DNA of 64,000 nucleotides from NCBI GenBank assembly GCA_012839295.1, contig DUNO01000057.1, forward strand, positions 1 through 64,000, read 5' to 3'. The notes under the pieces were generated by a model. The model was not told the DNA's origin, made no database searches, and was given only the letters and a program-made list of their open reading frames with translations. Numbering within the stretch: position 1 is the first letter of the stretch; each line of letters opens with the position of its first letter. Shown here one piece after another: positions 8,212 to 64,000 of the stretch. Made by a program: the position numbers and the translations under genes. Source of the stretch: Clostridiales bacterium. GTDB taxonomy: Bacteria > Bacillota > Clostridia > Lachnospirales > Lachnospiraceae.

Positions 8212-8221
8212 ATTATGTCCA

Positions 8222-9025: not shown

Positions 9026-9558
9026 CGATATGGTGTAGCAGTAAACAGAATTTTTTTACAATTAAAATTGTCAACAACTGTTTTCCAAACATCTGCGTAC
9101 TCTCTATGTCCCTCATCAAATATGACCAATCTAATATGAGAAGTCAATTCCGAAAATTCTTCTTGTCTTTCATTGTAAATTGCACATAGTTGCTGTATGG
9201 TAGTAATTATTATACATGAATATGTAAAGTCTATACTTTTCGTATCAATTACATTTGATAACATTATTATTTTCTTGAGTCCGACATATAAATAATCAAT
9301 TTTCTCCCAAAACTCGGTACATATCTCCTTGCTTATCTGTCCAGGAAGTGTTGAGTTAGGCGTTATTATTAAAATGCTGTCATTATCATTAATTTCAGAA
9401 GCAGTAGCAATAACGCCTGTTTTGCCTGTTCCTGTTGGCATTTTAATAAGGATTTGTCCCATTTCCTCAGTCCTTAAATAGCTTTCTATCTTATTTACAG
9501 CATCCCTTTGATATGATCTTAAATGACTTTTTATCTCATTTAATACACCAAGCTCCAT
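9013..9558 (-). pseudogene. DEAD/DEAH superfamily 2 helicase, C-terminus lost to IS21
   Basis: N-terminal helicase lobe with Walker A MPTGTGKT, motif II DEGH and motif III FTATPYRND. The frame stops at the IS21 junction near 9018, so helicase domain 2 and everything after it are missing. It lies downstream of the Avs-like gene on the same strand, separated by 286 bases, and may once have belonged to that defence locus or a neighbour. RBS GGGAGGAATT precedes the ATG at 9558. Confidence 0.8.
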
Positions 9559-9792
9559 ATAATTCCTCCCTAGTCAAATTCAAATATATCTGGGTAAATG
9601 ACTTTACAATTAAAAAACATCAAATATCCATACAGTGGATTTAGTTATAATATCTTTTTCTAATTAAGATATTGCCTTCTATTTGAATTTCAAATATTAT
9701 AGCTATCCTTTTTTTCATCAAAATCATTCTGGTTCAGTTTTTAGAAACTATCACCTTAATATCCTTGGAATTTCTGGTATTCCCCTACCTCG

Positions 9793-9811
9793 TAGTGTAC
9801 ATTATACACTA
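9793..9811. other. Small hairpin between the Avs-like gene and the helicase remnant
   Basis: TAGTGTA-CATTA-TACACTA. There is no T run, so it could be a weak terminator or part of the helicase promoter region. The other bases in 9559-9844 show nothing coding. Confidence 0.3.
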
Positions 9812-9844
9812 TACTCGCTAAATAACATGCTAGATAGTAATCTT

Positions 9845-16615: not shown

Positions 16616-18118
16616 TTATTTAAAACTCTTTGACACAATAACTCCAATAACATCTGTCAAGGCTGACTCAAATCCCCTGCTTACATCATCTTCCCCGCTC
16701 TTAGCATGCATGCACTCATGAATTAGAGTCCCTGCAAAGCTTTTTAAGTCTTTTAATTGTCCCCGTTTGATAATAATTAAGCCTTCCGATGGTTCCCATA
16801 GTCCAACCGTTTCTGAGAATATTTCCGATTCATATATTGTTTCTGAAACTTTAATATTTTTCACTTTATTAGGTTTCCCGCCTATCAGTTCCAATATATT
16901 GCCCTTCTTTGAATAAATTTCCTTCTCGTTTGGATTCAATCCGGATTCGTCTACGAAAGTATATTTTTTCTTTTCTGCCATATCTTGAATAAATTTATTT
17001 GTTGTCAAAATCGGAGTACTATCCTCTTCTGTTTCCTGGTTATAATCATCTATCTTATTAACCAAGTTTTCTGGAACTACTATAGGTTCAAAGCCTTTTT
17101 GCTTCATTTCATCAATTATGCTGGGTCTACTAATAGCTGTGTCCGATGTAACGAAGACCACATTTTCTTTAAAATCCCTCACTTTTTTGGAAGCATACAT
17201 TGCAACATCATTCCATGCAAGTTCATCATGCCGTAAGCCTGAATTATATTGTTGTAAATCATCTATCAACTTGTAAATAACACATTCTTCCCTGCAAGCC
17301 AGTAAAATAGTTTTTATTCTATCTGAATACGCGGTTCTCCCTACGTTTGTCCGTTCTCTGTTTAAAGCCTTTTTTATTTGTTTTGTCAAAGATGTAATAT
17401 TATACGAGAATAGAAAATTACTCTCTTCTGCAACCTTTACTCCATTTATATATATGTAAGAAATATCACTGTTTTTAGAAATAATCTGTCCATAAGTCGT
17501 TTGCTCAAGAATACTGGAATCAGTAAATTTTAAAAAAAGTGACTTGGCAATTTCTATATCTTTGTCTGTACACCCTATTAATGCAAAATCTGTACCAATC
17601 ATTTTTTTATTGGGTGTTTCATCAATCTTTGCGTGAAGAGTGATAATATCATCAAATCCTGTTTTTGATGTCTCCAGTAAAGTAATAACTCCATATTTTG
17701 AAGTAATGCTAACATTTACATTGTGCCGGTATAATGTTGCTAATGCATCTTTTAAGCCAACTCCAAATCTCCCTATTAACTTGTCGTTATTCAGTTTCTC
17801 TTCATTTTCATTTTGTGTTAAATGGTGATAATTAATCCCTCTACCATAATCAATAATATGCCATTCATTATTTTCTTTAATTATCTGTATGTCCTGCGTA
17901 TCAGTTATTACCTGTTCATCCAATGCATTAGCTATTATTTCTCGGATGGCATGATACACTTCCCAGTTTTCAAGTATTTTTTCAATATTTAAATCAAATT
18001 CTCGATTTTCATTACTTTTAGTGGTATTTGCTTCGACTGACTGATGCTCAAGTGTTGTTGAAAGAGGAATATTAGTTTCATTATTAATCAATATTTTATT
18101 TTTCTTAAAAAAAGCCAT
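16616..18118 (-). CDS. GHKL ATPase with C-terminal HExxH metallopeptidase-like motif
   Basis: 500 residues. The N-terminal half has GHKL (HATPase) motifs: N-box REIIANALDE (59-68), G1 IIDYGRGI (88-95) and G2 LIGRFGVGLKDA (114-125). The C-terminus has TLIHECMHAKSGEDD, where HECMH (467-471) fits the HExxH zinc-protease motif, and FESALTD carries a possible third ligand, Glu 484. Joining an ATP-sensing GHKL domain to a gluzincin-like end is unusual. Position at the head of the Avs-like operon suggests a regulator or effector of defence. The zinc protease call rests on one motif, so activity is inference. Confidence 0.75.
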   Translation of the reverse strand: MAFFKKNKILINNETNIPLSTTLEHQSVEANTTKSNENREFDLNIEKILENWEVYHAIREIIANALDEQVITDTQDIQIIKENNEWHIIDYGRGINYHHLTQNENEEKLNNDKLIGRFGVGLKDALATLYRHNVNVSITSKYGVITLLETSKTGFDDIITLHAKIDETPNKKMIGTDFALIGCTDKDIEIAKSLFLKFTDSSILEQTTYGQIISKNSDISYIYINGVKVAEESNFLFSYNITSLTKQIKKALNRERTNVGRTAYSDRIKTILLACREECVIYKLIDDLQQYNSGLRHDELAWNDVAMYASKKVRDFKENVVFVTSDTAISRPSIIDEMKQKGFEPIVVPENLVNKIDDYNQETEEDSTPILTTNKFIQDMAEKKKYTFVDESGLNPNEKEIYSKKGNILELIGGKPNKVKNIKVSETIYESEIFSETVGLWEPSEGLIIIKRGQLKDLKSFAGTLIHECMHAKSGEDDVSRGFESALTDVIGVIVSKSFK

Positions 18119-50745: not shown

Positions 50746-51138
50746 TTATACCTGATTGATGTTTAAAGGTCTAGCATTATTTGGATCATCCACAAGCCTT
50801 TTTCTGTTTTCGCTATTCAATTCACTCGTTGTAAATACCTGTATATCCTCAAGACAGAAGTAAAGTCCCTTGTCCTTAGCAAAGTTTAAGATAATTTTAG
50901 TGATATCTTCTTTATATTTTTCTAAACATGCAACTGCGATCTCATCCTTTATACCCTGTGGCATAACTGACAAGGCTGACTTTATTACGGTTGCTGATAA
51001 AGAACTATTTTTCCCTACCATTTTAGTTATAAATCCTGCTTCCTCCTTTTCAGACATTTTTTCAATAATCGTAGGGAGAAAAGCCTCAATCGCTGTTCCA
51101 TAATCTGTATCACTGATTTTAATCTTCATTTCAATCAT
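50746..51138 (-). CDS. Unknown protein next to the VWA gene
   Basis: 130 residues from the ATG at 51138 (GGAGGG upstream). Helical, with Lys/Glu-rich N-terminus and MSEKEEAGFITKMV. No recognised family. It lies 24 bases after the VWA gene on the same strand and is probably the last gene of the locus. Confidence 0.6.
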   Translation of the reverse strand: MIEMKIKISDTDYGTAIEAFLPTIIEKMSEKEEAGFITKMVGKNSSLSATVIKSALSVMPQGIKDEIAVACLEKYKEDITKIILNFAKDKGLYFCLEDIQVFTTSELNSENRKRLVDDPNNARPLNINQV

Positions 51139-51162
51139 ATTATTACCCTCCATTTTTTAAAT

Positions 51163-51798
51163 TTATACAACTTTGTTATCATCCTCTGAATTCCATCCTG
51201 CATCCACTCTTCCTTCCCCTCTCATTTGCCTGACAGCACGGTCTGCACCGGCGTAAACCCTCGCTGTTCCAAGATTAGTTGCCGCATAATCCATTGAAAA
51301 TTTTTCATCAATGCCAATGGATGCTGCTTCTGCTGCAGAATCAATATTGGCTCCCATAAATATGAATTGCCAGTTATATTTTTGGGTCTGGTGAGTTATC
51401 ATTTCCTTTACCCTGTCTTTATCATATTCTTTACTGGAATTTTCCTGTCCATCTGTGATAATCACTACAATTACTTTGGACGGACGCTCTTCCTCAGCCA
51501 GCATTGCCAGCCTATGGCCTATATCAACAATGGTTTTTCCAATCGCATCATATAGCGCAGTCATACCCCGCGCATAATACTCCTTATTTGTCATGGGCTG
51601 TACTGTCTTTATGTCTGCCGCATCATAGAGAAGTTCATATTTATCATCGAAAAGTACTGTTGTGACCCATGCTTCTCCCTGATCTTCTTTTTGGCTTTCA
51701 ATAAACCTATTGTATCCTCCGATTGTATCCAATTCTAACGTTGACATGGAACCGCTACGGTCCAAAATACACACAATTTGCGTAAGATCATTTCTCAT
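51163..51798 (-). CDS. von Willebrand factor A domain protein
   Basis: 211 residues. The MIDAS is seen in CILDRSGSMSTLE (DxSxS), with Thr in GMTALYDA and Asp in IITDGQENS. It is cytoplasmic, with no signal peptide. Such short VWA proteins are chaperone or recruitment factors that bind partner proteins through a metal ion. The start is uncertain (ATG 51798 or GTG 51819). Confidence 0.85.
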   Translation of the reverse strand: MRNDLTQIVCILDRSGSMSTLELDTIGGYNRFIESQKEDQGEAWVTTVLFDDKYELLYDAADIKTVQPMTNKEYYARGMTALYDAIGKTIVDIGHRLAMLAEEERPSKVIVVIITDGQENSSKEYDKDRVKEMITHQTQKYNWQFIFMGANIDSAAEAASIGIDEKFSMDYAATNLGTARVYAGADRAVRQMRGEGRVDAGWNSEDDNKVV

Positions 51799-51862
51799 GC
51801 TTATACCCGCGCCTTTCACTTTTTGATGACCTATTCAAAAAGTGAATAGGCCTTAATAAATA

Positions 51863-51891
51863 GTTTGAAAGTGACTTTCTTTCAAACTTTT
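51863..51891. other. 9-bp hairpin between the SEDS and VWA genes
   Basis: GTTTGAAAG/CTTTCAAAC with TTTT after it on the plus strand. It could attenuate read-through to the VWA gene. Confidence 0.4.
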
Positions 51892-51901
51892 CCTTCTTAT
51901 A

Positions 51902-52975
51902 TCATTGATTGATATTATCATGACAGCAATGAATATAAATACCCATTAATATAATATCAAGGATAATTTCTGCTCCATATCCCACAAATGGCAAATAACC
52001 ACTGCTGAAAAATGGAAGCAGGTTAAAAAACACCAAAAAACAAAATATTACTTTTATCAAAATATAAATAGTAATTGAAAACGCCAGCTTTTTTGAAAAA
52101 ATCCCCTCAATTCCTGAGGTCAAACGAAACATATTCCATATCATTAACAGCAGCAGCCCCAGAATAACAGCAAATACACTCCATCCAAAGAGAATAAGTA
52201 TGGTGGGCAATATTTCGCCGCTAAATTTATTTGCATAGGAGGATCTTCCAATCAGAAGAGCCGTTTTCATAATCTCAAAATCCTGGATTTTCATATATCC
52301 CTTACCCTGTGCGTACTGATATGGATCCATCCATACAGAAATATTTTGTATGTCCTGTTCTAATTTCAAAAAATAGTAGCCGACAATAACAACCCCATAT
52401 ATTGCCAGGCTGCCCATATATATCAGTGTATGTTTTCCCTTTCTCCAAGGAAGCATTGCCGAGAACAGGAGGGTTGCAATAAATATATTTCCTGCATTAC
52501 CGTCAACTGCAATGATCATGATAAATAATATGCTCAGTCCACTCATTATGGGAAATGTGTACCTGCTGTTTGCGGGGAGCTTTCCTTGCATTAGGACAAA
52601 TGCAAATAATAGAATAATAATGCTAAGGGTGGAGGTTCTAAATCTTATAAAAAACACTTCTATGTATCTGATGCCTGAAACGGAAAAGAAAAAGGGCAGT
52701 TCTGATGGCAGCAGGCTAAGTGCTGCAGCAATAGCAATGAGTATGCATGCCAGGAGCATTTTCTTTTTTATTTCTATTTGAGGGGAGAGAAAATAGACAG
52801 CTGCAGCTCCAATGATGCCAAACAACATATATACCAGCATTTTTTCAAAATAATAGGATTCGTCCAAATACTTTGAATTAACAACTCTAGAATACTGGCT
52901 GTAAACGAATAATCCACTTAATAGCAATAAAGCTGCAGAGGCCACGATAACTGTAATTTTTTTTCCCTTGTCCAA
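51902..52975 (-). CDS. Divergent SEDS-family (FtsW/RodA-like) membrane protein
   Basis: About 357 residues from a TTG at 52975, where GGAGGGAG lies 5 bases upstream. The upstream ATG (53008) has no ribosome site. Ten membrane segments. The SEDS landmarks are present but loose: WMDPYQYAQGKGYM (W-[LM]-[DN]-P) and LPFFSSGYLPFVG (a relative of the LPF-S-GG motif). The usual catalytic Asp region is hard to assign. FtsW/RodA polymerise peptidoglycan with a PBP; no PBP is nearby. Confidence 0.75.
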   Translation of the reverse strand: MDKGKKITVIVASAALLLLSGLFVYSQYSRVVNSKYLDESYYFEKMLVYMLFGIIGAAAVYFLSPQIEIKKKMLLACILIAIAAALSLLPSELPFFFSVSGIRYIEVFFIRFRTSTLSIIILLFAFVLMQGKLPANSRYTFPIMSGLSILFIMIIAVDGNAGNIFIATLLFSAMLPWRKGKHTLIYMGSLAIYGVVIVGYYFLKLEQDIQNISVWMDPYQYAQGKGYMKIQDFEIMKTALLIGRSSYANKFSGEILPTILILFGWSVFAVILGLLLLMIWNMFRLTSGIEGIFSKKLAFSITIYILIKVIFCFLVFFNLLPFFSSGYLPFVGYGAEIILDIILMGIYIHCCHDNINQ

Positions 52976-53060
52976 GGTGCTCCCTCCATCGTATTTTCTA
53001 TATGGCATTTTATATATGGTATTTCCTATATTGCCTTTTCTATTTTAGTCTTTTCTTTTT

Positions 53061-53564
53061 TTACCCCTGGCTCCTGCTCTTTACCTTTTGCTCTGCTTCC
53101 ATTCTGTAGTTCTTCTTTTCTTCTGTATTCATATCCTGAAATGGGATTATAACCCGTCCCAGGGTATCAATGTATGCATATACTGTTGTTTCATTGCAGT
53201 TTTCTCCGCCAAATCCGTCTTCATCTTCAAAATACCGACCATCCGGATACAAGGTCCACCATACAAAAGCGACTCCGTTAATAAAGGATTCTATACCAAA
53301 CCCATAGTGCACTTTTAAAGCATGCGCATTATGGGAGTTCTCAAGCCTATCAACCTTTTCGAAATCAATATCTCCGGGCTGCATATTCGTCAGAAGGTTG
53401 TATTCATTCATAATCATGGCCTCTATATGGGCAATGGTATTTTCAAGAATAATTTCGCCTGCCTTCGTATAGTGAATTATTACGCCTTCTCCCCGGCGGT
53501 ATGATTCTTTATACCGGTTATCTGCCCTGCCCAGTGCGTTTTGCACCCTCTTCCAAAGGAACAT
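53061..53564 (-). CDS. Unknown acidic protein
   Basis: 167 residues, starting MFLWKRVQNALG at 53564 after GGGAGG. Soluble, with aromatic-rich WWTLYPDGRYFEDEDGFGGE. No family recognised. It sits between the SEDS and radical SAM genes. Confidence 0.6.
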   Translation of the reverse strand: MFLWKRVQNALGRADNRYKESYRRGEGVIIHYTKAGEIILENTIAHIEAMIMNEYNLLTNMQPGDIDFEKVDRLENSHNAHALKVHYGFGIESFINGVAFVWWTLYPDGRYFEDEDGFGGENCNETTVYAYIDTLGRVIIPFQDMNTEEKKNYRMEAEQKVKSRSQG

Positions 53565-53688
53565 ACAAACCACCTCCCTTTCACCCCAGCTAACTCTTCC
53601 TTCTGTACTTTCATAGAAAGCAGGACTAAGAAGCTTTGAATTTTCTACTATACTCTATTTGATTAGAATATACTTCCAAGTAAACTAA

Positions 53689-54834
53689 TTAGGAAATACT
53701 CTCCATAATGTATTTAATAGCCTTGATTCTATACTTTTCTGAACTACCGATTTGGGAGCTGTTTAATATAGGATCCTTCAAAATAGCCCTCAACTGGTAT
53801 CTGCAGGCAGACATAACCTGGATTTTAAAGGTTTTGCAGCTGCTTTTTTCTCTGCAATCCGGTTTACCAAACAACCGGATGGAATTTCCGGTGCACACTG
53901 GGCAAATACCGTCCAAGCTGCATTCTTCGCATAAGTGGTTGTTCATCTCGCCGCAACGGGTACCCACCTGCTCATATCCCTTTATTTGTCCATGTTCTTT
54001 TATTTGTCCGTATTTCTGTATCTGTTCTTTACTTAATACCAATGGTGAAATCAAGTGGCAGGAATATCTCTGCCCATCCCAGTCATATGTTATTCTGCTT
54101 TCCCCCAGTCCGCAGCCTGCCCTCATGAACTTCCTGTCTTCCAGCACAGGTAAAAGATTAATAGACAGCAGGTTGCTAGGCGTAGCCTCAGCATGTTCCA
54201 AATAGTAATCAGCCAAGATATCAAGCTGTTTTCTTAGAATATCCAGTGATCCAGGTTCCCATTCCGGCACCCCTCCGGCAAAGCTCGTATTAGCCCTGAC
54301 ACCCTTCTCCTGTAAAGCGATAATGCTCTCTGCCAGATATGGGACCGATTCTTCCGATATTGTCATTTTCAGGCCTTGCCCAGGCCAATTATGAATAAAG
54401 AAACCAATATCTATCAAGGAGTCGGATCCGCTTCTGTTAATATTTTGGGCACTTTGGGTTCCGTCATAGCTTAAGCAAAGTATGAAGCGCTCCTTGTTTT
54501 TCGCAAACCATTCCTTATTCTGCTCATCCAGCAAGGTACCGTTTGTTACCGCAGATAAAAGATACGGTGTTGCCCACTCCTGCGCCCAGACCCACTCCGC
54601 TACTTCCATAACTTTCCTACAAAGCATCAGCGGCTCTCCGCCAAGAAATACAAATTCCAAACAATCATAAAAGCCTTTTGCCTCTTCAAATGAAGCAGCT
54701 ATCACTTTTTTTGCAGTTTCTGTTGACATACTGCAGGACTTGTATTCCCTGACATAACAATACCGGCATCTCAGATTGCAATCATGGGTAAGCAAAAGGG
54801 TAATCATCCGGTTTTTTCTGAACTGAGCTTTCAT
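53689..54834 (-). CDS. Radical SAM/SPASM protein, candidate RiPP maturase
   Basis: 381 residues from the ATG at 54834. Radical SAM motif HDCNLRCRYCYV (C19, C23, C26) binds the 4Fe-4S cluster for SAM cleavage; FVFLGGEPL follows. The C-terminal SPASM region has Cys-rich GCGLGESRITYDWDGQRYSC, then CEECSLDGICPVC and CREKSSC, for one or two auxiliary clusters. Such enzymes install thioether or other crosslinks on peptides. A degenerate internal repeat (QKYGQIKEHGQIKGYEQ) lies before the SPASM Cys cluster. It is 68 bases downstream of the Cys-ended small gene. Confidence 0.88.
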   Translation of the reverse strand: MKAQFRKNRMITLLLTHDCNLRCRYCYVREYKSCSMSTETAKKVIAASFEEAKGFYDCLEFVFLGGEPLMLCRKVMEVAEWVWAQEWATPYLLSAVTNGTLLDEQNKEWFAKNKERFILCLSYDGTQSAQNINRSGSDSLIDIGFFIHNWPGQGLKMTISEESVPYLAESIIALQEKGVRANTSFAGGVPEWEPGSLDILRKQLDILADYYLEHAEATPSNLLSINLLPVLEDRKFMRAGCGLGESRITYDWDGQRYSCHLISPLVLSKEQIQKYGQIKEHGQIKGYEQVGTRCGEMNNHLCEECSLDGICPVCTGNSIRLFGKPDCREKSSCKTFKIQVMSACRYQLRAILKDPILNSSQIGSSEKYRIKAIKYIMESIS

Positions 54835-54902
54835 ATACAACAACCTATCCCTTATTAAATTATATGATTCAAATCATTCTATTTCTGAAGTATTCCGTAT
54901 TC

Positions 54903-55238
54903 TTATATATCCTTCGTATAAGCACAGCTATAAGTCGTTTCCGTGTATACGCAAGTAGTTGAGAGACAATCCCCTTTTACCTTTACCGTCCCATAGTCGC
55001 CTTTCATAGCCTCAGGCTCCGAATAATCTATATTCTTTAATACATCTATCTCTTCCTGGCTTAATCCCAGCCTATGGAACCACTGCGTCCCCTGCTCTGT
55101 CTCCGGCTGATCCTCAGGCAACTCATTGTAATCCTCATCCATCTCAGTTGTTTCTTCCATATAGTCCGCTACATGATCCGTTACCGTAACCGGTTCAACT
55201 TCCTCCCTACCGAACGTGCCACTATCAAATTCAAACAT
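54903..55238 (-). CDS. Small acidic protein with three C-terminal cysteines, RiPP precursor candidate
   Basis: 111 residues starting MFEFDSGTFGREE at 55238, overlapping the gene before it by 8 bases. The leader is very acidic, followed by an amphipathic stretch (FHRLGLSQEEIDVLKNI). The only three Cys lie in the last 21 residues (91, 96 and 105) amid Thr, Ser and Tyr (CLSTTCVYTETTYSCAY). That layout is what radical SAM peptide maturases act on. No database family is recognised. The alternative is a plain structural or regulatory protein. Confidence 0.65.
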   Translation of the reverse strand: MFEFDSGTFGREEVEPVTVTDHVADYMEETTEMDEDYNELPEDQPETEQGTQWFHRLGLSQEEIDVLKNIDYSEPEAMKGDYGTVKVKGDCLSTTCVYTETTYSCAYTKDI

Positions 55239-55743
55239 GCTCCACCATCCATTTTTTATATTTTTCCGACATCCCGTCATAAAAGGGAAGCTGGGCAACG
55301 GGAACTGATTTTTCAAATATTACATAATACTTTGTTAAAAGCTCTTTTTGGTCTGCCGTAAGGCTTTCTTCAAAAACAAAGCTTCTAATTTCTTCATACA
55401 GCTTGGCCAGCAGCTCCATTTCCAGCCGGTGTTCCCCCGGTGATTTTTTTTCACCATCCGGAATCCCATAGTTTATCTTTTCCTCGAAGGGATACTTCTG
55501 TGTCGGTACAAAATCAAACACATAGGCATTCTCATATTTTAAAATCGTTCCATCCTCCATGGCACTGGTAACAAGGGCAAAGGGACGGGTCCTTACCTCC
55601 GCCGGCGACGAGGGATAAAGGAACACTTTTTCTACCAGGATGCTGTTTACCAGATCCGGCACTGGAAATGAGATACTGCAATTACCGCATAAATCCGCGA
55701 TTACTTTCTTATTCTTTTCTAAAATTTCATAATATTTTTTCAT
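55231..55743 (-). CDS. Unknown protein upstream of the precursor candidate
   Basis: 170 residues from the Met at 55743 (GGAGG upstream). Soluble, starts MKKYYEILEKNKKVIADLCG, with CGNCSISFPVP. No known domain. The 8-bp overlap with the precursor gene implies linked translation; it may serve as a recognition or chaperone protein. Confidence 0.6.
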   Translation of the reverse strand: MKKYYEILEKNKKVIADLCGNCSISFPVPDLVNSILVEKVFLYPSSPAEVRTRPFALVTSAMEDGTILKYENAYVFDFVPTQKYPFEEKINYGIPDGEKKSPGEHRLEMELLAKLYEEIRSFVFEESLTADQKELLTKYYVIFEKSVPVAQLPFYDGMSEKYKKWMVEHV

Positions 55744-55754
55744 GGTACAGCCTC

Positions 55755-56507
55755 CTAACATGCTCTTAATGCTTCGTTTGTTACTACTGCGGATGCACCC
55801 GGAACATCTTCATATGCATCTTCCATCGTTTCCAGTGACATAAAGCGTGCGCTGCTGTCCTCGCCTATGAGCCCGCTGTCACATACAATGAAGCCCTGTA
55901 GCCTGCCAGCTTCATCTCTGACAGTTCCTGTAACAGTAATTTCGTGGTTTGCAGAGCCATCATTCACGCCTGCTAAAGACTGCCAGGCATAGCCTGCATT
56001 GATGCCTATGGCTACACCATGACCTTCTTCCACATACCGTGCAACAGCTTCACAGCTTCCTTCCTCTGATTTCGCCGGAAAAGCTGTGGCTTCTACCCCG
56101 TTCAGCTTAAAAAGCTCAATGATCTGCGTATCATTTACTCCTCCCCTGCTTTCGGGCGGAAGAAACGGGGAATAGTTGCAGAGCTGGTTCTCAATGGCTT
56201 CTCCTGTGATACGCTCCTCATCCGCTTCTATCCCGCACAGCGTTAAAACATTGGAGGTACTGACCAGGCCGCAATTGCCTTCTGCATTGTAGCTATTGTC
56301 TCCCTGGTTATCATCCAGGCTGTCAGCCACTTCATATGCATTCCCATAGACAAATGCCGGTTCTACTCCGGGTATATCATGCCTTACATCCGGCTGCATA
56401 TTAAATCCTTCCGCTTCATTCCATTCCTTTACCTCCATAGCCTCATTGCTTTCATGAAAATCAGGCACGATTTCCGGCTGATATCTCTCAAATTCCAACT
56501 CATTCAT
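55755..56507 (-). CDS. C39/papain-like cysteine-peptidase domain protein
   Basis: 250 residues. Residues 1-70 are acidic and low complexity. A papain-like core follows: GNCGLVSTSNVL (Cys 79), SANHEITVTG (His 188) and GFIVCDSG (Asp 210). This triad order fits C39-like bacteriocin-leader peptidases or toxin-associated C39 domains. Here it is upstream of the precursor candidate, so cleavage of its leader is a reasonable guess. AAGGAGGTGAG precedes the ATG. No signal peptide. Confidence 0.75.
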   Translation of the reverse strand: MNELEFERYQPEIVPDFHESNEAMEVKEWNEAEGFNMQPDVRHDIPGVEPAFVYGNAYEVADSLDDNQGDNSYNAEGNCGLVSTSNVLTLCGIEADEERITGEAIENQLCNYSPFLPPESRGGVNDTQIIELFKLNGVEATAFPAKSEEGSCEAVARYVEEGHGVAIGINAGYAWQSLAGVNDGSANHEITVTGTVRDEAGRLQGFIVCDSGLIGEDSSARFMSLETMEDAYEDVPGASAVVTNEALRAC

Positions 56508-56641
56508 CCTCTCACCTCCTTGTAGCTTAACAATGATTTATCTTTGTTCTTCAGGCAATCGCTTGATCCTCCTGCTATTCACAGTATAACAGCCCAAAGC
56601 CTTTATCTATGCGGACTTCATTTTTGGTTGTTAAAAATCCA

Positions 56642-59600
56642 TTATTGGATCCCAGGTTTTTTTCTTATCATAATTCCGGCCCCATATTTTCCAAACCACT
56701 GCTGATATACCTTCTTTATTCTGATATCCTTAGCACCATATAATAGCGCGGAATTCAATATAGAAATTTCTGTTTCCCGATTTGTCAATAATTCCATCCT
56801 CATACATCTTACCGCAAAAACATGCAGGTCTTCTGCAGCACCCTTTAATGCTTCGTTAAGAATTGCATTGCCTCCCGATATTTCATATGCAATTTTAACT
56901 CTTTCGCTATAACTATCCCACTCTGCAACCTGCTGTCCTTCCACATATTGCCTCAGAATTTCTGCCAGCCTCTGGTCAGCAGCACTTCTGCTTTTTTCAA
57001 GAGAAACAATTGATTCCAAACACTGCTGTTTCGTTGGCAATTTAGCTTCTGTCATATTGACAAGCAATATTTCTGCACCATGGCCCCGGGCCAGCTTTAA
57101 GGCTTCCAGATCTTTCCCATCTTCTGGAGGATGACTTTTTTCACACAGGTTGAACCATTTTCTATAGATTGGAATCAGGCTCTTATTTTTCTGCTTTTTA
57201 CTCCACAGAATACATTCAATGATCAAATCAATCTCTGCCTGCGAAAATTCTTCTGCAAGCTGCATTTCCCCAACCTTCACCGTCATATTGGCCCAAACTG
57301 CGGCTGCCAGCTCTGCCTTTGACTGTGCTTCATCAATTTCACCTATTTCATCCGATGGATGCAGCAGATCCGATACAATGTATGCCACGCTTCCCCATTT
57401 GCTATGTTCAAAGAGTAATCCATTCAGAAGTTTTCTTTTCCGGGTAATCTCATATTCACCGGTGCATATCCAATCGCAGACCTGCTTCTGGATATCCGGT
57501 GCTGTTGTGCCTGAGCTGTTTACAAGACTGATTAAATACCGGACCATCCGGGTTACCTGCCCCGCTTCCTTTCTTTTTCCGGATTCCAAGTCGTATTGGT
57601 ACACCAGACTGTCGTCGCTGTTCTCAGCTTTCCCAATCTTGCAGAGAACCGCCTCCAGCCAGTCATTTTGATAAATCACACAAACTCCCTTTTTCAATCT
57701 TGGTATTTCGTCTATCTGCTGAGGGTTCAGACCCATGGAGCGGCCCGTTAATTCCCTGTCACTAAACTCCGGCAGACGCAGCAGGATTTTGGTATTTGTA
57801 TTTCGGATGACGGACATATCAAGAAGTCCCGGGGACTGGTCAACGATAATAAAGCCTTCACCGTAGGTACGCATTTCTGCTATGGAATTTGCTATCATTT
57901 CTACTGATTTTCCCAACAGGTTAGAGCCCTCCTGGCTCTGTTCCGAGGATGTCCTGCGCAGCAAATGATGAGCCTCTTCTAAAATTGTGACATGTTTTAA
58001 CGGCAAATTCATTCCGCCGCCGCTCATACGGTGTTCCTGCAGCCTGAGGATCAATATTCCCATCAGCATCGCTTTTGTTTCCGTTGAAAAAGCCCTGCTC
58101 AGGTCAATAATCACATTCTTTTCAAACAGCTGCTCATCCCCGAGATCCTCTCCGGAGAAAATCTGTCCGAATAATCCCTTGCACAGGGATTCAAGCCGCG
58201 TTGTGAGCGCTCCCACATAATTCCCCCTGACCTCACCGGAAAAAGCAGAGGAATCCAGTTCAATGGTCAGTTCCCTGAGAACATCCCTGATCGTGGGAAA
58301 TATCCGGTGCCCCCCTCTGCATTTGGACTCCTTCATATTCCACCCACAGGAAATATATGCGTTCTCGACTGCCGCCTTTAAGACTGCCGGCATGGCCGCA
58401 TACATGGGCCAGCAGGCGTTAAAAACCTCAATCAGTTTATCAATATGCTCCAATACATGGATTTCCTTGTTAAATTTGAAAGGGTTCAGCTTTAACAATG
58501 GTGTTTTCTGGGGATTCGTACCATACACCTCCAGGTCAGGATAGTGGCCAAAGGCATTTTTATATTCTCCCTTCGCCGGCTCGATTACCAGGAATTTAAC
58601 GTTATTGTTATGTATTTCCTCCAATAATTTGTAGACTGTATTCGTCTTGCCGCTTCCGTTTGTTCCGGCAATAAATGTATGGGAAGCCAGACTCTGCATA
58701 TCAAGATATACCTGATTTTCCTTTTCCGTTTTCCCCATATGGTATATATTCCCGATTTTTGCTATGGGGTTATCCGTTATTTCTTCACTGCGTACAATAT
58801 TCCTCCCAAAGGAAGCATACTCAACCACAGGAAGCCCCGGCACCGCCTTATGGGGAAATATGGTATGCAGGGCTAGCTGCCGTCCGCTGATTGGAACCGA
58901 CGGCTCTACAACACTGCGTTTTTTTTCTTTGCCCTCCGTATAATAAAATCTGGGATGCATAAATTTACATAAGTACTTTCGTACGCTTTCAACTCCGTTA
59001 TTCTGTGTCCATGTATTAATTCCGTAGGTATTGGTGTTCTTTCCGGCAGTTCTTAAAATGGACTGGTAGTGGCTGGAGATTATTTTATTAGTGGCAGGAT
59101 TATTTGACAGGATATAGGCGCAGCAGCTAAACATGCCCGTATTATCACATTCCTCAATTGCTTCAAGCACTCTTTCTATCTTATTATACAGGTTACTGAC
59201 CGTTTTATTTTGTACCGTATATTGCACTGTCTGCCCATAGGTTGATGTCTGCCCTTCCGTCTTTCCATTCTGGTAAGCGGTTCCCACAGTCCCGCCCACT
59301 GTCTTCCCTTTGCTTAGGCCGGTCTGAATGCCTCCGGTGGTACCGCTGCTCCCGGCTCCGCTCAGCATTCCATACATATATCCGCCACCGGGGATAAGAT
59401 AGGAGGAGGCAACCATCATGGCCGTTTGGGCAATACCTCCATTTCTCTCGCTGGCACTCCATCCGCTGCTTTCCGTATGGCTTTCCGTCAAGGAGATACT
59501 CCGGGTCACGCTCTTATTGATGCTTTCCGATACTGTGGAAGAGACCGAATCGCTTTCGCTCTTTTGTACACTGATAGAATTATTCACCAGTGCCGACAGC

Positions 59601-60253
59601 TGTGTACTCAGCTCTTCATAGCCGTATCTCATATTCGCTATATGTTCCTTATTCACAGAATCTGCAAGAATCAGTATGGTAAAAGACTGGTCTCCGATTG
59701 AATTGATAATATTATCTATACCATTCATAAATTCTCCGTCCCTAATACCATAGGTGGAGGATGAAATGGAGGTAATGCACTGTGTGTCAAAGCCTTTCCC
59801 AAGCATCCCGTCAATCTTCTTTTTTACATCCGATGCTTTTTGTACTTCGTCAAGAACCGTTCCGGGAAGATTTCCCTGCATACCGGACTGCAGGATATTC
59901 TTCAGCGTAAGTAGAAAGTATGGATTTTCATAATTTTTTTTGTTTACAACCCCAATATAGATTGTTACCTTTCCGTTTTTGCACTCCAAAAGGGCGATAA
60001 AGGACCCCTCGCACATATTAACCGCATGAAAGACTGTCGCTATCTTGTCAGTCAATCCCTCTTCCCGTGAATAAACAAGCTCTTTTAGCTGAAACAGACA
60101 GGTTGCTTCCTCAATAGGGATACGGGAAGTCTCATCGTCTAATTCATCAATCTTTACAAAATCCGTATCCAGCTGCATACAATATGTTTTTTCAATTGCT
60201 TTTTGCGCCTGTACAATGGTGCCGTTCAAATCCTCCGCAAAATCATCCTTCAT
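56642..60253 (-). CDS. HerA/FtsK-type (DUF87) ATPase, 1203 residues
   Basis: The N-terminal 400 residues are unlike known domains and include a Gly-rich, hydrophobic stretch (GGIAQTAMMVASSYLIPGGG). The ATPase begins near 525: Walker A FIAGTNGSGKTNTV, VIEPAKGEYKNAF, Walker B VTILEEAHHLLRR, and IIVDQSPGLL with an Arg-rich finger (RLPEFSDRELTGR). The C-terminal 350 residues are helical. HerA-type pumps move DNA or proteins in repair, conjugation and defence. It lies in an operon with Hsp70-like and unknown proteins, without relaxase or phage genes. Confidence 0.85.
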   Translation of the reverse strand: MKDDFAEDLNGTIVQAQKAIEKTYCMQLDTDFVKIDELDDETSRIPIEEATCLFQLKELVYSREEGLTDKIATVFHAVNMCEGSFIALLECKNGKVTIYIGVVNKKNYENPYFLLTLKNILQSGMQGNLPGTVLDEVQKASDVKKKIDGMLGKGFDTQCITSISSSTYGIRDGEFMNGIDNIINSIGDQSFTILILADSVNKEHIANMRYGYEELSTQLSALVNNSISVQKSESDSVSSTVSESINKSVTRSISLTESHTESSGWSASERNGGIAQTAMMVASSYLIPGGGYMYGMLSGAGSSGTTGGIQTGLSKGKTVGGTVGTAYQNGKTEGQTSTYGQTVQYTVQNKTVSNLYNKIERVLEAIEECDNTGMFSCCAYILSNNPATNKIISSHYQSILRTAGKNTNTYGINTWTQNNGVESVRKYLCKFMHPRFYYTEGKEKKRSVVEPSVPISGRQLALHTIFPHKAVPGLPVVEYASFGRNIVRSEEITDNPIAKIGNIYHMGKTEKENQVYLDMQSLASHTFIAGTNGSGKTNTVYKLLEEIHNNNVKFLVIEPAKGEYKNAFGHYPDLEVYGTNPQKTPLLKLNPFKFNKEIHVLEHIDKLIEVFNACWPMYAAMPAVLKAAVENAYISCGWNMKESKCRGGHRIFPTIRDVLRELTIELDSSAFSGEVRGNYVGALTTRLESLCKGLFGQIFSGEDLGDEQLFEKNVIIDLSRAFSTETKAMLMGILILRLQEHRMSGGGMNLPLKHVTILEEAHHLLRRTSSEQSQEGSNLLGKSVEMIANSIAEMRTYGEGFIIVDQSPGLLDMSVIRNTNTKILLRLPEFSDRELTGRSMGLNPQQIDEIPRLKKGVCVIYQNDWLEAVLCKIGKAENSDDSLVYQYDLESGKRKEAGQVTRMVRYLISLVNSSGTTAPDIQKQVCDWICTGEYEITRKRKLLNGLLFEHSKWGSVAYIVSDLLHPSDEIGEIDEAQSKAELAAAVWANMTVKVGEMQLAEEFSQAEIDLIIECILWSKKQKNKSLIPIYRKWFNLCEKSHPPEDGKDLEALKLARGHGAEILLVNMTEAKLPTKQQCLESIVSLEKSRSAADQRLAEILRQYVEGQQVAEWDSYSERVKIAYEISGGNAILNEALKGAAEDLHVFAVRCMRMELLTNRETEISILNSALLYGAKDIRIKKVYQQWFGKYGAGIMIRKKPGIQ

Positions 60254-60269
60254 TACCGGCTCCCTCCCT

Positions 60270-61235
60270 TTATTGATTCATAAGCATCCTGGCGGATTCC
60301 ATTATCTTTTTATAATTTGCAATATTGCCCTGCTTTTTTAATAACCATTTCTTATAACGGATCAGTTCCTCTCTTTTTCTCTCCGTGGCCTCATCCATCA
60401 CATAATTCTTCAGCTCATCGATCCTATACTGAATATCCTCCTCTGACTGGAGTTTTTCTACCGTCTTCCATAGCTGATGATGAATCCGGTACAATTCATA
60501 TACGGCTACAGGCTTGGAATATTTTTCATAAACATGTTCAAAATCACTGATCTCCTCCGAACAGCAAACCTGGCAATTCATCGCTTCGGCATAGGATTTA
60601 AATTTTTGCAGCTTTACCGTGTCATGAAACAAGCACAGGATCCCGTCTGCCGGAACCATCATGGTCTGATATAGCCTCACTAATTTCTCAATGTCTTCAA
60701 AGCTTTTTAACGCTTCTTCATGGACAAGATAAGTGTAGCCCCTCTCCGGCTCCGTATCAAAAATTTTATCAATATTATGGATCTCTCTTTTATACTCCCC
60801 TATTTGTGCCAGCCGGTTTTTTAATTGGATGCACTTGGCTATTGTATCTATGCCGGGTACGGGAGCAAACTCCAGCAGCTCCAGCTCTGCGGACGCCGTT
60901 TGCAGCATTTTTTCCGCCTTCCCATATTCCACTGCTTTTTCAGCGAATGTTATTTTCAATTCCTGCTGCCAGGGGTATTCGTCTATAATTTTTTTAAAAT
61001 CCTTAAAATCCAACTCCCTGCCTTGAAATACAATCTCCAGGTCATCGCCTCTCGCAATATCACTTATATATTTGGCGATCCCCTTCCAGGAACCGTTTTT
61101 GTAAATCCAGCATTGCAAGGGATAATCCTTTACCGGAAAAATAAAGCTATAGATATCCTTATTATCACTTACTATCCCATTTATAGCAGTATCCGTATGT
61201 ACTGCCGCCGGATCATACCCGATATCAATTCTCAT
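60270..61235 (-). CDS. Unknown protein in the HerA/Hsp70 locus
   Basis: 321 residues, starting MRIDIGYDPAAVHTD at 61235 (AAGGCGGGG upstream). An upstream ATG at 61370 is not supported. N-terminal beta-rich part, then a helical part rich in Lys and Glu with coiled-coil character (LEDIEKLV, LQSEEDIQYRIDELKN). No recognised family. 16 bases separate it from the HerA-type gene. Confidence 0.7.
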   Translation of the reverse strand: MRIDIGYDPAAVHTDTAINGIVSDNKDIYSFIFPVKDYPLQCWIYKNGSWKGIAKYISDIARGDDLEIVFQGRELDFKDFKKIIDEYPWQQELKITFAEKAVEYGKAEKMLQTASAELELLEFAPVPGIDTIAKCIQLKNRLAQIGEYKREIHNIDKIFDTEPERGYTYLVHEEALKSFEDIEKLVRLYQTMMVPADGILCLFHDTVKLQKFKSYAEAMNCQVCCSEEISDFEHVYEKYSKPVAVYELYRIHHQLWKTVEKLQSEEDIQYRIDELKNYVMDEATERKREELIRYKKWLLKKQGNIANYKKIMESARMLMNQ

Positions 61236-61370
61236 AGCAGCCCCGCCTTTCTGTATCCGCAAAAATAATCTTTGCATATCACATGCTCCGCCCACAAAGG
61301 TCTTTCTATAAACTAACGTGGTAAATATGAATGCCTCTGTAGCTATCCGTGCGCAGACCGGTTCTCCCAT

Positions 61371-61477
61371 AATTGCCTGTACTTGGTAATCATGGGAGTT
61401 AAAGGCAGGCCCAGGTGGCTATAGAGGCACCCATTTTCATCCCACAGCCTAAATCACGCTCATTTACCCTTGAATTC
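61371..61477. other. Short spacer before the unknown protein gene
   Basis: About 100 bases between the end of the Hsp70-like gene and the start region of the next gene. No clear promoter or terminator. Confidence 0.3.
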
Positions 61478-63703
61478 TTACATACTCTCAATGGTATATT
61501 TGATTTCGTCGGCCTTTGCACTTACCTGTGCATTCAATGTGGTAATCAAGCCATCAACTAGCTTTTTGCTGTTTTCTTTCCCGGTCATCGCCTCCTTTAA
61601 CTTGGAAAGCAACTCCTCACTATTAAAGGATTCCTTAATCTTACTGTCTGTTACTCTTTCCCTTACCCAGGAAGGTAAATCGTAGCCCGTAATCTTTTGG
61701 GAAAATTTCTCCTTAACACTGTCCACCCCATTGGTAACTAATACATACAATGCATAACCGGCAACAACGGCGATAATCGCGTAGCCCCCAACTGGTATTG
61801 CAGCCAGGATAAGGAATAATATTCCTCCAAGGGTTGCAGAAAGCATGGAAACTAATAAAAGAATGATTCCTATAACCGTAGGAAGTGCAATATACGCGAT
61901 AATTCCTGCAATTAAGCCTATGACACCTCCCAGGACATCCATCATACCTAAATCCACCATCTTACCGCCGTTAATGCTTCCCATATCAACCTTAACACCG
62001 GATATATTTAGATCCTTTAATTCAAACTCCTTTTTCACATTATATTTCTGGCACAATTCCTGAAGCTCAAGTGCAATATCCTTGCTTAATTTATTGGTAT
62101 ACCAATCGCCGACCGCTTCCATATATCTGCTGTCATTTTTTAGCCTGCTGGAAAGATTTTCTTCCGTGCACTCCGCTTTTATTGCATCTGTAGCATCGTC
62201 AATTGTTTTATACTTTCCCTTTCGCCATTTGTCCATTTCCGTAAATACGATTTCCTGGACAAGATCAGCAATCACCGGCCCTATTCCTGTTTTTTCCTCC
62301 ATATCCCCAACCAGGTCAGGAATATCCTGGATAATAAGCTCCGGGATCCTATTCTGGATAATATGGCTGATGTCCTTCTGAAAAGCGATGGATTTGTCAT
62401 TGGAAGCACCGACTGCTACCAGTCCCTTGGAAATGGTTCTAGCGGGATCCATATCCTCCGCTGTTTCTATCCCTACAAAGACCTCTTTTGTTACGGCTTT
62501 CACAACCGGCATTCTTGAGGCACTTCCAGTAAAAATGATGCGGCTGATTACCGTTTTATTTTTTGCAAGATTGCTTTTCTCCTGCTCCAAGAATTCCCGG
62601 AATAACTCCTTCCAGCTTTTATCCCCCATCTCCACGGCTACCTCATCAGGAAGATCCGTATACCGTTTCAAAACCGGCTTCACAGGCCTTGATCCGACCA
62701 GCTCGTCTAAGACCTGGGGCTCCAGCCTGATTACCGGAAAATCCGCGAATATAATCGTAGAAAGCACACCAGTTGAAAACACATTTTCCTTTGCTTTCCT
62801 GCAGTTCAGCAGCAGACTCATTTCCGACGTAGGGTTATTAACAATGATATCCTCAAAATCAACCCGGTATTCCGCATTTATTTCAAACAGCGTTTTCTGA
62901 TACCATATAAATATTAACCAGTCTATGGCTCTGGCTCCAAGATAATTATTTCCGCTATTATACTGGCTATTTCTTGAATCCGAGGTTAGCGCCGTAATAT
63001 CAATCGTTGACGAACCGACATCAATCAGCATGGCGCAGGTATCTTTTTTAATCTTCAGCCCATTGATTTGACGTTCGTACAGGAATGCCGCCCTGGATTC
63101 CTGTGCCAGAACAATGCTGACCGGATATCCTGCATAGGTTTTCTTTCCCAGAATACTTCCCTGCAGGATCCTTTTATAGATTAAGGCATCGACTTTAGAC
63201 CACTTTGTCGGGTGTCCTACGGTTACTACAATCTCCCCTGCGCCACCATTTTGGGCGGAGCTTCTGATTTTTTCCGCAAATACGGCATCTGAAAATATGG
63301 CATCCGTAAATACTATTACCTTTTTTCTATATTCACGTATTTGGGGCGTATTTACAATACTGTCCGTGGGCCACTCTTTTCCATCATTGTCAAATAATTG
63401 AATTATGGCTCCCACTTTTTCATATCCTAAAGTACCAAGCAAATCCATGGGCTTTCTTTTAAAATTGATGGAGATATCCTTAATATTTTTATATGTAACC
63501 AGAATTACATTTGAAAACACAACATTACCATTATTATCATACCCATAAACCGTAGGCAGTGCCTTGCCCGGATCTACGGAACTGGGCATTGTCATGCTCG
63601 GGTAATCAATAATATTAAAATTTTTTTCACTGTCTGCCAATGCATTATCCGTTATTGTTTCTCCATCTCCAAGGTCGTATCCAATGTACAGCTTTTTACT
63701 CAT
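61478..63703 (-). CDS. Hsp70-like actin-fold ATPase with membrane segment
   Basis: 741 residues. Phosphate-1 motif YIGYDLGDGETITD, phosphate-2 MLIDVGSSTIDIT, and adenosine motif IIFTGSASRMPVVK, as in DnaK-type proteins. The substrate-binding domain is absent. Residues 590-660 hold three hydrophobic helices (GVIGLIAGIIAYIALPTVIG, IILLLVSMLSATLGG and YAIIAVVAGYALYV). A Lys/Glu-rich C-terminus follows. A membrane-anchored Hsp70 is unusual and suggests a signalling or assembly role. GGAAGGAATG precedes the ATG. Confidence 0.85.
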   Translation of the reverse strand: MSKKLYIGYDLGDGETITDNALADSEKNFNIIDYPSMTMPSSVDPGKALPTVYGYDNNGNVVFSNVILVTYKNIKDISINFKRKPMDLLGTLGYEKVGAIIQLFDNDGKEWPTDSIVNTPQIREYRKKVIVFTDAIFSDAVFAEKIRSSAQNGGAGEIVVTVGHPTKWSKVDALIYKRILQGSILGKKTYAGYPVSIVLAQESRAAFLYERQINGLKIKKDTCAMLIDVGSSTIDITALTSDSRNSQYNSGNNYLGARAIDWLIFIWYQKTLFEINAEYRVDFEDIIVNNPTSEMSLLLNCRKAKENVFSTGVLSTIIFADFPVIRLEPQVLDELVGSRPVKPVLKRYTDLPDEVAVEMGDKSWKELFREFLEQEKSNLAKNKTVISRIIFTGSASRMPVVKAVTKEVFVGIETAEDMDPARTISKGLVAVGASNDKSIAFQKDISHIIQNRIPELIIQDIPDLVGDMEEKTGIGPVIADLVQEIVFTEMDKWRKGKYKTIDDATDAIKAECTEENLSSRLKNDSRYMEAVGDWYTNKLSKDIALELQELCQKYNVKKEFELKDLNISGVKVDMGSINGGKMVDLGMMDVLGGVIGLIAGIIAYIALPTVIGIILLLVSMLSATLGGILFLILAAIPVGGYAIIAVVAGYALYVLVTNGVDSVKEKFSQKITGYDLPSWVRERVTDSKIKESFNSEELLSKLKEAMTGKENSKKLVDGLITTLNAQVSAKADEIKYTIESM

Positions 63704-63753
63704 CTGCTTTCATTCCTTCCGTTGCAATAAATTTGCACAAATAGCGTCTTCTG

Positions 63754-64000
63754 CTATTCCTCCGCAGTTTCGCTTTCAAGACTATCACCACTCACCAACT
63801 GGTATTTCATGCCCCGGAGTACGACCTCCGTTCCCCTTTTAAAGCATGGCTTGCCTCCCATGTATTCTCGCTCTTTTTGGGTTTTGAACACCTGAATTTC
63901 CCCTTCGTCTATCTCTCCTTCACCGCTCCAAACCACCTGGATTCCCATATCCTCCAGCATTTCACGGATTTGGATATAAACCTGGGAGGTTTCACCGGAT
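63754..64000 (-). CDS. Unknown protein, N-terminus outside the window
   Basis: C-terminal 81 residues in an open frame that runs to the window edge (SGETSQVYIQIREMLEDMG and onward). An ATG at 63960 has no ribosome site, so it is internal. The end is acidic and has FKRGTEVVLRGMKYQLV. No family recognised. Confidence 0.6.
   Translation of the reverse strand, partial: SGETSQVYIQIREMLEDMGIQVVWSGEGEIDEGEIQVFKTQKEREYMGGKPCFKRGTEVVLRGMKYQLVSGDSLESETAEE

What the first reader, a model, noticed from the sequence alone, without database searches (positions are those of the whole stretch)
50746..64000. Possible undescribed RiPP-like system with radical SAM, C39 peptidase, HerA-type ATPase and Hsp70
Seen: an uninterrupted minus-strand run with a radical SAM/SPASM enzyme, a 111-residue acidic protein whose only three Cys are in its last 21 residues, a C39-like peptidase domain, a 1203-residue HerA-type ATPase, a membrane-bound Hsp70-like ATPase, a divergent SEDS protein and a VWA protein. 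Known: SPASM enzymes crosslink Cys-bearing peptides and C39 domains cleave leaders. Inferred: the peptide is modified by the radical SAM protein, cut by the peptidase and then handled by the ATPases. I know no named pathway with this mix. Alternatively the genes may be two or three independent units.
Basis: partly seen in the sequence, partly recalled or inferred. Interest (0 to 1): 0.9.

Follow-up and report, generated by a model that had tools for sequence, protein, structure and literature searches.

The report
HerA toxin locus with RiPP cassette

Summary
The genes are real, and the run continues past the window to a LytTR regulator. Relatives change the reading. The HerA-like ATPase belongs to a family whose next gene is usually toxin-like: in 20 of 31 close relatives (window and nearest sister left out) it carries a Pfam toxin-nuclease domain, and SUKH or YezG immunity genes often follow. 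Three of five named plasmids viewed read dynamin-dynamin-hypothetical-HerA-HNH nuclease. Here an Hsp70-like protein stands where most checked relatives have dynamins, and the toxin slot holds the C39-like protein, so it is more likely a papain-like toxin (its neighbour the immunity protein) than a leader peptidase. The Cys protein plus radical SAM is a separable cassette: a same-genus locus has the rest without it, and 8 of 10 close radical SAM relatives (window included, one doubtful) have a small Cys-ended frame within 130 bp against 21 of 227 controls. Enzyme-peptide pairing is well supported; processing by C39 is not (no GG/GA/GS site; C39 occurs without the peptide). Most likely: a HerA/Hsp70 toxin island carrying a second, radical-SAM-modified peptide effector. 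That last step rests on one locus. Delivery to other cells versus internal anti-invader action is undecided.

The parts
63754..64000 (-). 3' part of P257 (257 aa; continues to contig position 64527), unknown; conserved before Hsp70 in G031 (25% identity)
   Evidence: no significant PDB relative
61478..63703 (-). Hsp70-like (ASKHA) ATPase, 741 aa, hydrophobic segments near C-terminus by eye; stands where most checked HerA relatives have dynamin-like GTPases
60270..61370 (-). P366, adaptor-like protein; part of it matches four dynamin-like proteins at three related HerA loci (E 4e-8 to 1e-10), in three of them ahead of the GTPase domain
56642..60253 (-). HerA/FtsK-superfamily ATPase, 1203 aa; core of the locus
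55755..56507 (-). C39-like papain-fold protein with acidic N-terminus; predicted toxin (slot after HerA)
55231..55743 (-). P176, predicted immunity protein; follows C39 in three genomes, two copies in one protein in G321
   Evidence: no immunity family or fold match
54903..55238 (-). 111-aa acidic RiPP precursor / peptide effector, three Cys in last 21 residues (C-x4-C-x8-C; one CX3E, one CX4D)
53689..54843 (-). radical SAM/SPASM maturase, PapB/CXXX-like; below the cut-off of each of the 25 NCBIfam models shown
53061..53573 (-). P170, unknown; 63% identical in G031, so not specific to the peptide cassette
51902..53008 (-). divergent SEDS (FtsW/RodA-like) membrane protein, conserved in G031
51163..51819 (-). 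VWA-domain protein; relative at the G294 HerA/Hsp70/C39 locus (E 3e-53), absent from the G031 locus
50746..51153 (-). P135, unknown; relatives at the G031 and G294 HerA loci

Best explanation
The run is a HerA-ATPase-centred toxin/immunity island of the Hsp70 type. Shown by comparison: a HerA ATPase with an exchangeable NTPase (dynamins in most checked relatives, Hsp70-like here), and a slot after HerA that holds a changing toxin-like gene, often with an immunity gene behind it. Inferred: in this genome that pair is the C39-like papain-fold protein (toxin, probably a cysteine protease or transferase) and P176 (immunity). A second cassette sits right behind it, the 111-aa acidic precursor and its PapB-like radical SAM enzyme. 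The enzyme most likely ties one or more of the three C-terminal Cys to nearby Glu/Asp/Thr by thioether bonds (the CX3E and CX4D spacings fit PapB chemistry), making a modified peptide effector that the HerA/Hsp70 machine handles alongside the C39 toxin. The machine would hold, unfold or pump the acidic-tailed cargo, either out of the cell into competitors or free of its immunity partner when the cell is invaded; the data do not choose between these.
For: HerA slot: single Pfam scans find a toxin-nuclease domain (WHH/Colicin-DNase, Endonuclea_NS_2, LHH, Ntox15) in the gene after HerA in 20 of 31 loci above 500 bits (phmmer; window and G031 left out). Of 30 following genes scanned (window and G031 included), 9 match SMI1_KNR4/SUKH and 3 YezG-like. 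Plasmids viewed, 5 of 42 matching records: dynamin-dynamin-hypothetical-HerA-HNH nuclease in Lactococcus, E. coli, Treponema; HerA-HNH nuclease without annotated dynamin in Exiguobacterium; SMI1/KNR4 next in E. coli, Exiguobacterium, Treponema. Tandem cargo exists: in G682 HerA is followed by papain fold toxin 1, a small gene, a NucA-like nuclease and a small gene, the two toxins sharing an N-terminus (0 of 2000 shuffles). C39-like as a toxin domain: at G326 and G175 the systems match (HerA 66% identical) and the acidic cargo N-termini align, but the C-terminus is C39-like by our profile in one (no Pfam hit) and an ADP-ribosyltransferase in the other. Separable cassette: G031. Peptide-enzyme link. 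Slot proteins are acidic in their first 60 residues (p 2e-7), and the Cys protein is among the most acidic (5 of 38 slot and 1.6% of 372 control proteins reach it).
Against: This radical SAM family was found at a HerA locus only here, 1 of 35; one other of the 35 (G342) has a different SPASM enzyme. The most similar precursor layout (G653) is just as acidic in a genome without a HerA hit, so acidity need not be a HerA signal. The Cys protein's N-terminus is not detectably related to that of the C39 protein (1326 of 2000 shuffles reach the score) nor, beyond composition, to the G653 peptide (86 of 2000 full shuffles, 428 of 2000 local shuffles). All six HerA/Hsp70 loci seen have a C39-like protein, so C39 might be a fixed part rather than a swapped toxin; in G576 its Cys and His are lost. 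P176 matches no immunity family or fold. All 20 recognised slot domains among the close relatives are nucleases, which also fits a DNA-capture defence. No export signal or channel was shown.
Confidence: 0.5

Rival explanations
1. One reading: the radical SAM enzyme modifies the Cys protein, the C39 protein cuts off its leader, and the ATPases export or handle it; one RiPP system.
For: Adjacency and packing of C39, P176, Cys gene and radical SAM; the predicted C39 fold has its best target-normalised TM-score, among the 50 hits listed, with the ComA peptidase domain (0.71).
Against: C39 and P176 at the G031 and G321 loci without a radical SAM gene; C39 sits in the toxin slot; no GG/GA/GS in the peptide; no ABC transporter seen among the genes of the run.
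Confidence: 0.12
2. Two independent neighbours: a HerA/Hsp70/C39 island and an unrelated small RiPP (peptide plus radical SAM) that inserted by chance; HerA does not act on the peptide.
For: Peptide/enzyme pairs stand apart from HerA in the fetched stretches of G653, G388, G682, G515, G949, G1034 and a Phocaeicola plasmid; association with HerA seen once for this radical SAM family. G682 and G658 have a HerA relative, but on another contig.
Against: The pair lies inside the run exactly behind the toxin/immunity pair, with an 8-bp overlap to P176; the window precursor is longer than the six others measured and more acidic than five of them.
Confidence: 0.28
3. The island is an anti-invader system: HerA captures foreign DNA or senses infection, and toxin, immunity and modified peptide act inside the infected cell.
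For: All 20 recognised slot domains in close relatives are nucleases, and HerA/FtsK 'capture' systems that channel invader DNA to nucleases are proposed in PMC12839542 (passages); WYL regulators precede two dynamin-type plasmid relatives; PADLOC HerA and Mad8 hits; HerA-effector defence pairs in PMC9503650 (passages).
Against: SUKH/YezG immunity genes next to the toxin and shared acidic or homologous cargo N-termini are more typical of polymorphic toxins; the window's slot protein is not a nuclease. No phage data. Not exclusive with the best explanation.
Confidence: 0.3
4. In the Hsp70-type loci the C39-like protein is a fixed regulatory protease that releases or matures other effectors, and the Cys peptide is the true effector.
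For: All six HerA/Hsp70 loci seen have a C39-like protein (window, G031, G048, G410, G294, G576).
Against: G321 has C39 and P176 with dynamins; a C39-like end is replaced by an ADP-ribosyltransferase in G326/G175; no CxxxCxxC radical SAM enzyme near the other five; catalytic Cys and His lost in G576.
Confidence: 0.15

Closest known systems
Polymorphic toxin systems with papain-like toxins (Tox-PLC39, Tox-PL1) and SUKH immunity (Zhang et al. 2012, PMC3482391; passages of the held part)
   Same: Variable C-terminal toxin domains, neighbouring immunity genes; a C39-type toxin domain is listed there
   Different: In the passages seen, FtsK/HerA ATPases are named for type VII secretion; here a stand-alone HerA with dynamins or Hsp70, and no WXG/LXG family among the slot proteins' Pfam hits
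NTP-dependent conflict systems (Kaur et al. 2020, PMC7159879; passages)
   Same: NTPase with Hsp70/GrpE or vWA and variable effectors; one subset of FtsH ternary systems has a radical SAM enzyme thought to modify a peptide effector
   Different: Those are MoxR-vWA or GTPase centred; in the text HerA occurs only in a reference title, SUKH and dynamin not at all
HerA/FtsK capture, BREX-related capture and HerA-sirtuin defence systems (PMC12839542 passages; PMC9503650 passages; PADLOC)
   Same: HerA ATPase partnered with exchangeable effectors, often nucleases
   Different: Partners there are ORC/Cdc6, PglZ, GNAT, TGT or sirtuin; here dynamin or Hsp70 with separate toxin and immunity genes; dynamin and SUKH are not mentioned in PMC12839542
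PapA/PapB ranthipeptide maturation (PMC9413430 passages)
   Same: Radical SAM/SPASM enzyme best matching the PapB model; Cys with Glu/Asp at short spacing
   Different: 118 bits against a cut-off of 340; one CX3E and one CX4D instead of six crosslinks; long acidic leader; set in a toxin island
C39 leader peptidases (ComA, PCAT1)
   Same: Predicted papain-like fold with Cys-His-Asp
   Different: Stand-alone, no ABC transporter among its neighbours, no GG-type site in the adjacent peptide, sits in the toxin slot

Membership tests
HerA/FtsK superfamily ATPase | HerA central domain (DUF87) above curated cut-off | tested here: met
   45.3 bits against 23.2
Polymorphic toxin locus | Slot with exchangeable recognised toxin domains among relatives | tested here: met
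   20 of 31 close loci, all nucleases; papain fold toxin 1 in G682; ADP-ribosyltransferase in G175
Polymorphic toxin locus | The window's own slot protein has a recognised toxin domain | tested here: inconclusive
   No Pfam hit at E 0.01; relative G031 matches Peptidase_C39_2; papain-like fold and triad
Polymorphic toxin locus | Known immunity family next to the toxin | tested here: inconclusive
   P176 matches none, though SUKH/YezG stand there in relatives
Polymorphic toxin locus | Toxicity neutralised by the neighbour gene | not testable with these tools
   -
RiPP (radical SAM modified) | Small precursor adjacent to maturase, pairing kept in relatives | tested here: met
   8 of 10 within 130 bp against 21 of 227 control genes; stricter first rule 6 of 10 against 28 of 236
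RiPP (radical SAM modified) | Precursor homologous to those of the relatives | tested here: inconclusive
   Only the layout is shared with G653; similarity not significant
Ranthipeptide / PapB | Score above the PapB equivalog cut-off | tested here: not met
   118.4 against 340 bits
Ranthipeptide / PapB | Thioether to a non-alpha carbon | not testable with these tools
   -
C39 leader peptidase system | Double-glycine type site in the precursor | tested here: not met
   No GG/GA/GS
C39 leader peptidase system | Fusion to or neighbour of an ABC transporter | tested here: not met
   None seen among the genes of the run; the rest of the genome was not searched
Type VII secretion | WXG/LXG cargo domain | tested here: not met
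   None among the 12 Pfam families matched by the 39 proteins at E 0.01
MoxR-vWA / FtsH ternary conflict system | MoxR or FtsH AAA+ gene in the locus | tested here: not met
   No such family among the hits

The most novel reading that the evidence does not exclude
A HerA/Hsp70 machine whose cargo includes a radical-SAM-crosslinked peptide: a toxin island that uses a modified RiPP as an interchangeable warhead. The same idea may have arisen twice, since a second HerA locus (G342) carries a different SPASM enzyme near a Cys-rich protein.
Probability: 0.35. Interest if true: 0.85.

Novelty: new variant of a known kind. Interest (0 to 1): 0.62.

Why it matters
It points to a widespread toxin/immunity locus type built on HerA with dynamins or Hsp70. 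Ten searches of the open library were made; those for HerA with polymorphic toxin, toxin/HerA/FtsK/Lachnospiraceae/secretion, polymorphic toxin/Hsp70/immunity protein/ATPase/radical SAM, HerA/dynamin/HNH/immunity, radical SAM/polymorphic toxin/immunity, dynamin/SMI1/DUF87, polymorphic toxin/dynamin and HerA-like ATPase/toxin/effector did not turn up a description. Of the papers they listed, only passages of six were read; subscription papers and preprints are not held. If the peptide is handled by the same machine, RiPPs and polymorphic toxins, usually studied apart, share one apparatus, and the question of what HerA does to its effector could be tested with a small, mass-readable cargo.

Tried and rejected
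Tried and led nowhere: C39 profile against viral contigs (44 stretches, none confirmed) and against 343 other genomes of the order at E 1e-10 (one, G576). PDB sequence search with P257, suspected to be GrpE: nothing significant, so the idea was dropped. P176 fold search: nothing at E 0.001. Promoter and terminator scans: no more than in shuffles. Single radical SAM query against genome contigs: one distant Bacteroidota locus.

Considered and rejected: PCAT-type processing by C39 (no site, no transporter in the run); type VII secretion (no WXG/LXG family among hits); viperin (pVip hits, best 3e-13, cover only the radical SAM core). Homology of the Cys protein and the G653 peptide was not claimed after shuffles.

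On the pairing test: a first, stricter rule gave 6 of 10 against 28 of 236; it missed the window's own gene because of its overlap, and in L099 and L100 the frame found looked spurious. The rule was loosened after the loci had been looked at: 8 of 10 against 21 of 227 at 130 bp, 9 of 10 against 30 of 227 at 260 bp. The window is one of the ten and L099 is doubtful. For L013 the first enzyme was used and the second dropped (the reverse). Nine weaker relatives were left out; three of them (L053, L055, L061) had plainly Cys-rich small frames, the others none or chance-like ones.

On the slot sets: some proteins were picked by eye. For L017 the 215-aa frame overlapping the HerA end was taken, not the 134-aa gene the script listed; for L073, L074 and L076 the second gene after HerA was put into the acidity and Pfam set; for L019 and L078 a later gene was put into the immunity set. 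Thirteen loci below 500 bits are outside the 31, and HerA hits without a fetched stretch were not examined. The control set was not cleaned of spurious frames or of the slot proteins themselves.

On the tree: the dynamin label was first given partly by eye. A check showed L018 wrong (Sel1 repeats); with L018 out and L063, L067, L069 in, the count is the same. Of the six Hsp70 labels, G410 and G294 are by eye.

Full report
What is there. The window is the first 64,000 bases of a 68,566-base contig. On the minus strand a run goes from a LytTR regulator (contig 65906-65220) through an acidic repeat protein, P257, an Hsp70-like ATPase, P366, the HerA-like ATPase, a C39-like protein, P176, the 111-aa Cys protein, a radical SAM/SPASM enzyme, P170, a SEDS protein, a VWA protein and P135. 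With the starts chosen, the gap after the first gene is 269 bp, the others 3 to 134 bp, and the Cys gene's ATG overlaps the P176 stop by 8 bp.

A sister locus. In the genus, 2 of 34 genomes (own included) have the Hsp70-like protein at E 1e-30 or better. The other, G031, carries LytTR, P257, Hsp70, P366, HerA, C39 and P176 in the same order, then P135, SEDS and P170 (reverse order), 23-63% identical, plus genes of its own; at that locus there is no radical SAM, no Cys protein and no VWA. The rest of that genome was not searched for them. The radical SAM and Cys genes are therefore a separable unit.

What HerA belongs to. At E 1e-20, 45 of 396 other genomes of the family have a relative. I read the gene after HerA. 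Of 31 loci above 500 bits (phmmer), window and G031 left out, 20 have a Pfam-recognised toxin nuclease there: 8 of 10, 10 of 10, and L017 and L045. The other 11: L069, a C39-like relative of the window's; L018, L031, L032, L038, L043 and L068, no Pfam hit in single scans; L019, whose slot looks split; L048 and L049, where by eye a GTPase follows; L047, where the fetched flank held no gene. Of 30 following genes (window and G031 included), 9 match SMI1_KNR4/SUKH, 3 YezG-like and 6 DUF6985. Of 42 plasmid records with a match, five were viewed: Lactococcus cremoris, Escherichia coli and Treponema saccharophilum have dynamin-dynamin-hypothetical-HerA-HNH nuclease; Exiguobacterium has a hypothetical gene, HerA and HNH nuclease; R. 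albus has hypothetical genes on both sides of HerA. An SMI1/KNR4 gene follows in E. coli, Exiguobacterium and Treponema, a hypothetical one in Lactococcus; WYL regulators stand upstream in Lactococcus and Treponema. So this is a toxin/immunity island type.

Hsp70 in place of dynamin. In a HerA tree of 54 rows, window and G031 group with five dynamin-bearing loci (fork support 84, drawn open) inside a 40-row group (support 100) that holds all 14 loci labelled dynamin; four other Hsp70-type loci (G048, G410, G294, G576) form a separate group (support 100). The Hsp70 label needs two changes (quick method, several open forks). Dynamin_N was found by Pfam in 11 of those 14 and is annotated in the three plasmids; a twelfth locus tested, L018, has Sel1 repeats instead. 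P366 matches four dynamin-like proteins at three loci, in three of them ahead of the GTPase domain.

The C39 protein. The triad Cys79, His188, Asp210 is invariant in window, G031 and G321 and an equivalent one is seen in G410, G048, G294 and G326; G576 has lost the Cys and His. The predicted fold is of middling confidence (mean pLDDT 69) and papain-like; hits include staphopain (best E-value), the ComA peptidase domain, PCAT1 and a papain-like toxin/immunity pair, so fold alone does not decide between peptidase and toxin. Three things favour toxin: its place in the slot; the following gene P176, kept in three genomes and doubled in G321; and the loci G326/G175, where the rest is alike (HerA 66%, two other proteins 68% and 71% identical) and the acidic cargo N-termini align (33% over 355 columns; low-complexity sequence, so the E-value of 2e-26 is inflated), but the C-terminus is C39-like by our three-row profile in one (no Pfam hit) and an ADP-ribosyltransferase in the other. 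Against: all six Hsp70-type loci seen have a C39-like protein.

The Cys protein and its enzyme. The radical SAM enzyme scores best with PapB and CXXX-repeat maturases, below the cut-off of each of the 25 models shown of 74. Close relatives are scattered: 4 of 343 others of the order at E 1e-60, 2 of 360 of the class at E 1e-75 with a seven-row profile, a Phocaeicola plasmid. Small frames with Cys near the C-terminus sit within 130 bp in 8 of 10, window included, against 21 of 227 control genes (the rule's history is told under Tried and rejected). Five other peptides measured are near neutral (net -2 to +1); the window's and G653's are strongly acidic (-21 and -23). G653 has no HerA hit. The window core holds one CX3E and one CX4D; PapB is reported to accept Cys-to-Asp spacings of zero to six residues, and Glu (PMC9413430, passages).

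How it probably works. Shown: toxin slot in relatives, module exchange, separable cassette. Inferred with good support: radical SAM modifies the Cys protein. Inferred with less: C39 is the toxin and P176 its immunity protein. Weakest: HerA/Hsp70 handles the modified peptide as a second cargo. For it: the place of the insertion, the tandem cargo in G682, the acidic N-terminus common in slot proteins, and a second HerA locus (G342) with another SPASM enzyme near a Cys-rich protein. Against it: one case in 35 HerA loci for this radical SAM family, no detectable relation between the N-termini of the two cargoes, and acidity also without HerA. Whether the island acts on other cells or on invaders inside the cell is open; the nuclease-rich slots fit both.

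Verdict. A new variant of a known kind, probably an island type not described in the literature searched, with a bold but single-locus extension to RiPP effectors.

Noticed in passing
L189 (G682), 7196-12518: HerA followed by two toxin-plus-small-gene pairs in tandem (papain fold toxin 1, then a NucA-like nuclease) whose cargo N-termini are homologous
   Followed up: partly
L070 (G342), 1717-4295: HerA locus with a different SPASM enzyme (best model TIGR04463, E 8.5e-47, below its cut-off) near a 250-aa protein with CCxxNCC repeats at its N-terminus
   Followed up: partly
L075 (G343), 17180-17743: Short activating-enzyme-like radical SAM gene (by eye) near a HerA locus, next to an FHA-like gene
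   Followed up: no
L187 (G949) 5563-7924 and L188 (G1034) 6663-9030: Same radical SAM family with a small Cys peptide upstream and, by eye, a kinase-like gene downstream in both
   Followed up: no
L100 (G653), 6789-7645: A glycine-rich membrane-like protein (resembles DUF697 by eye, recalled) just before the acidic Cys peptide and its radical SAM gene
   Followed up: no
window 1-4000 and 8001-32000: G+C of 0.29-0.38 against 0.39-0.48 after 32 kb; a low-GC stretch that was not examined
   Followed up: no
L019 (G070), 1660-2306: Toxin slot looks split into two frames, the WHH-like end standing apart
   Followed up: no
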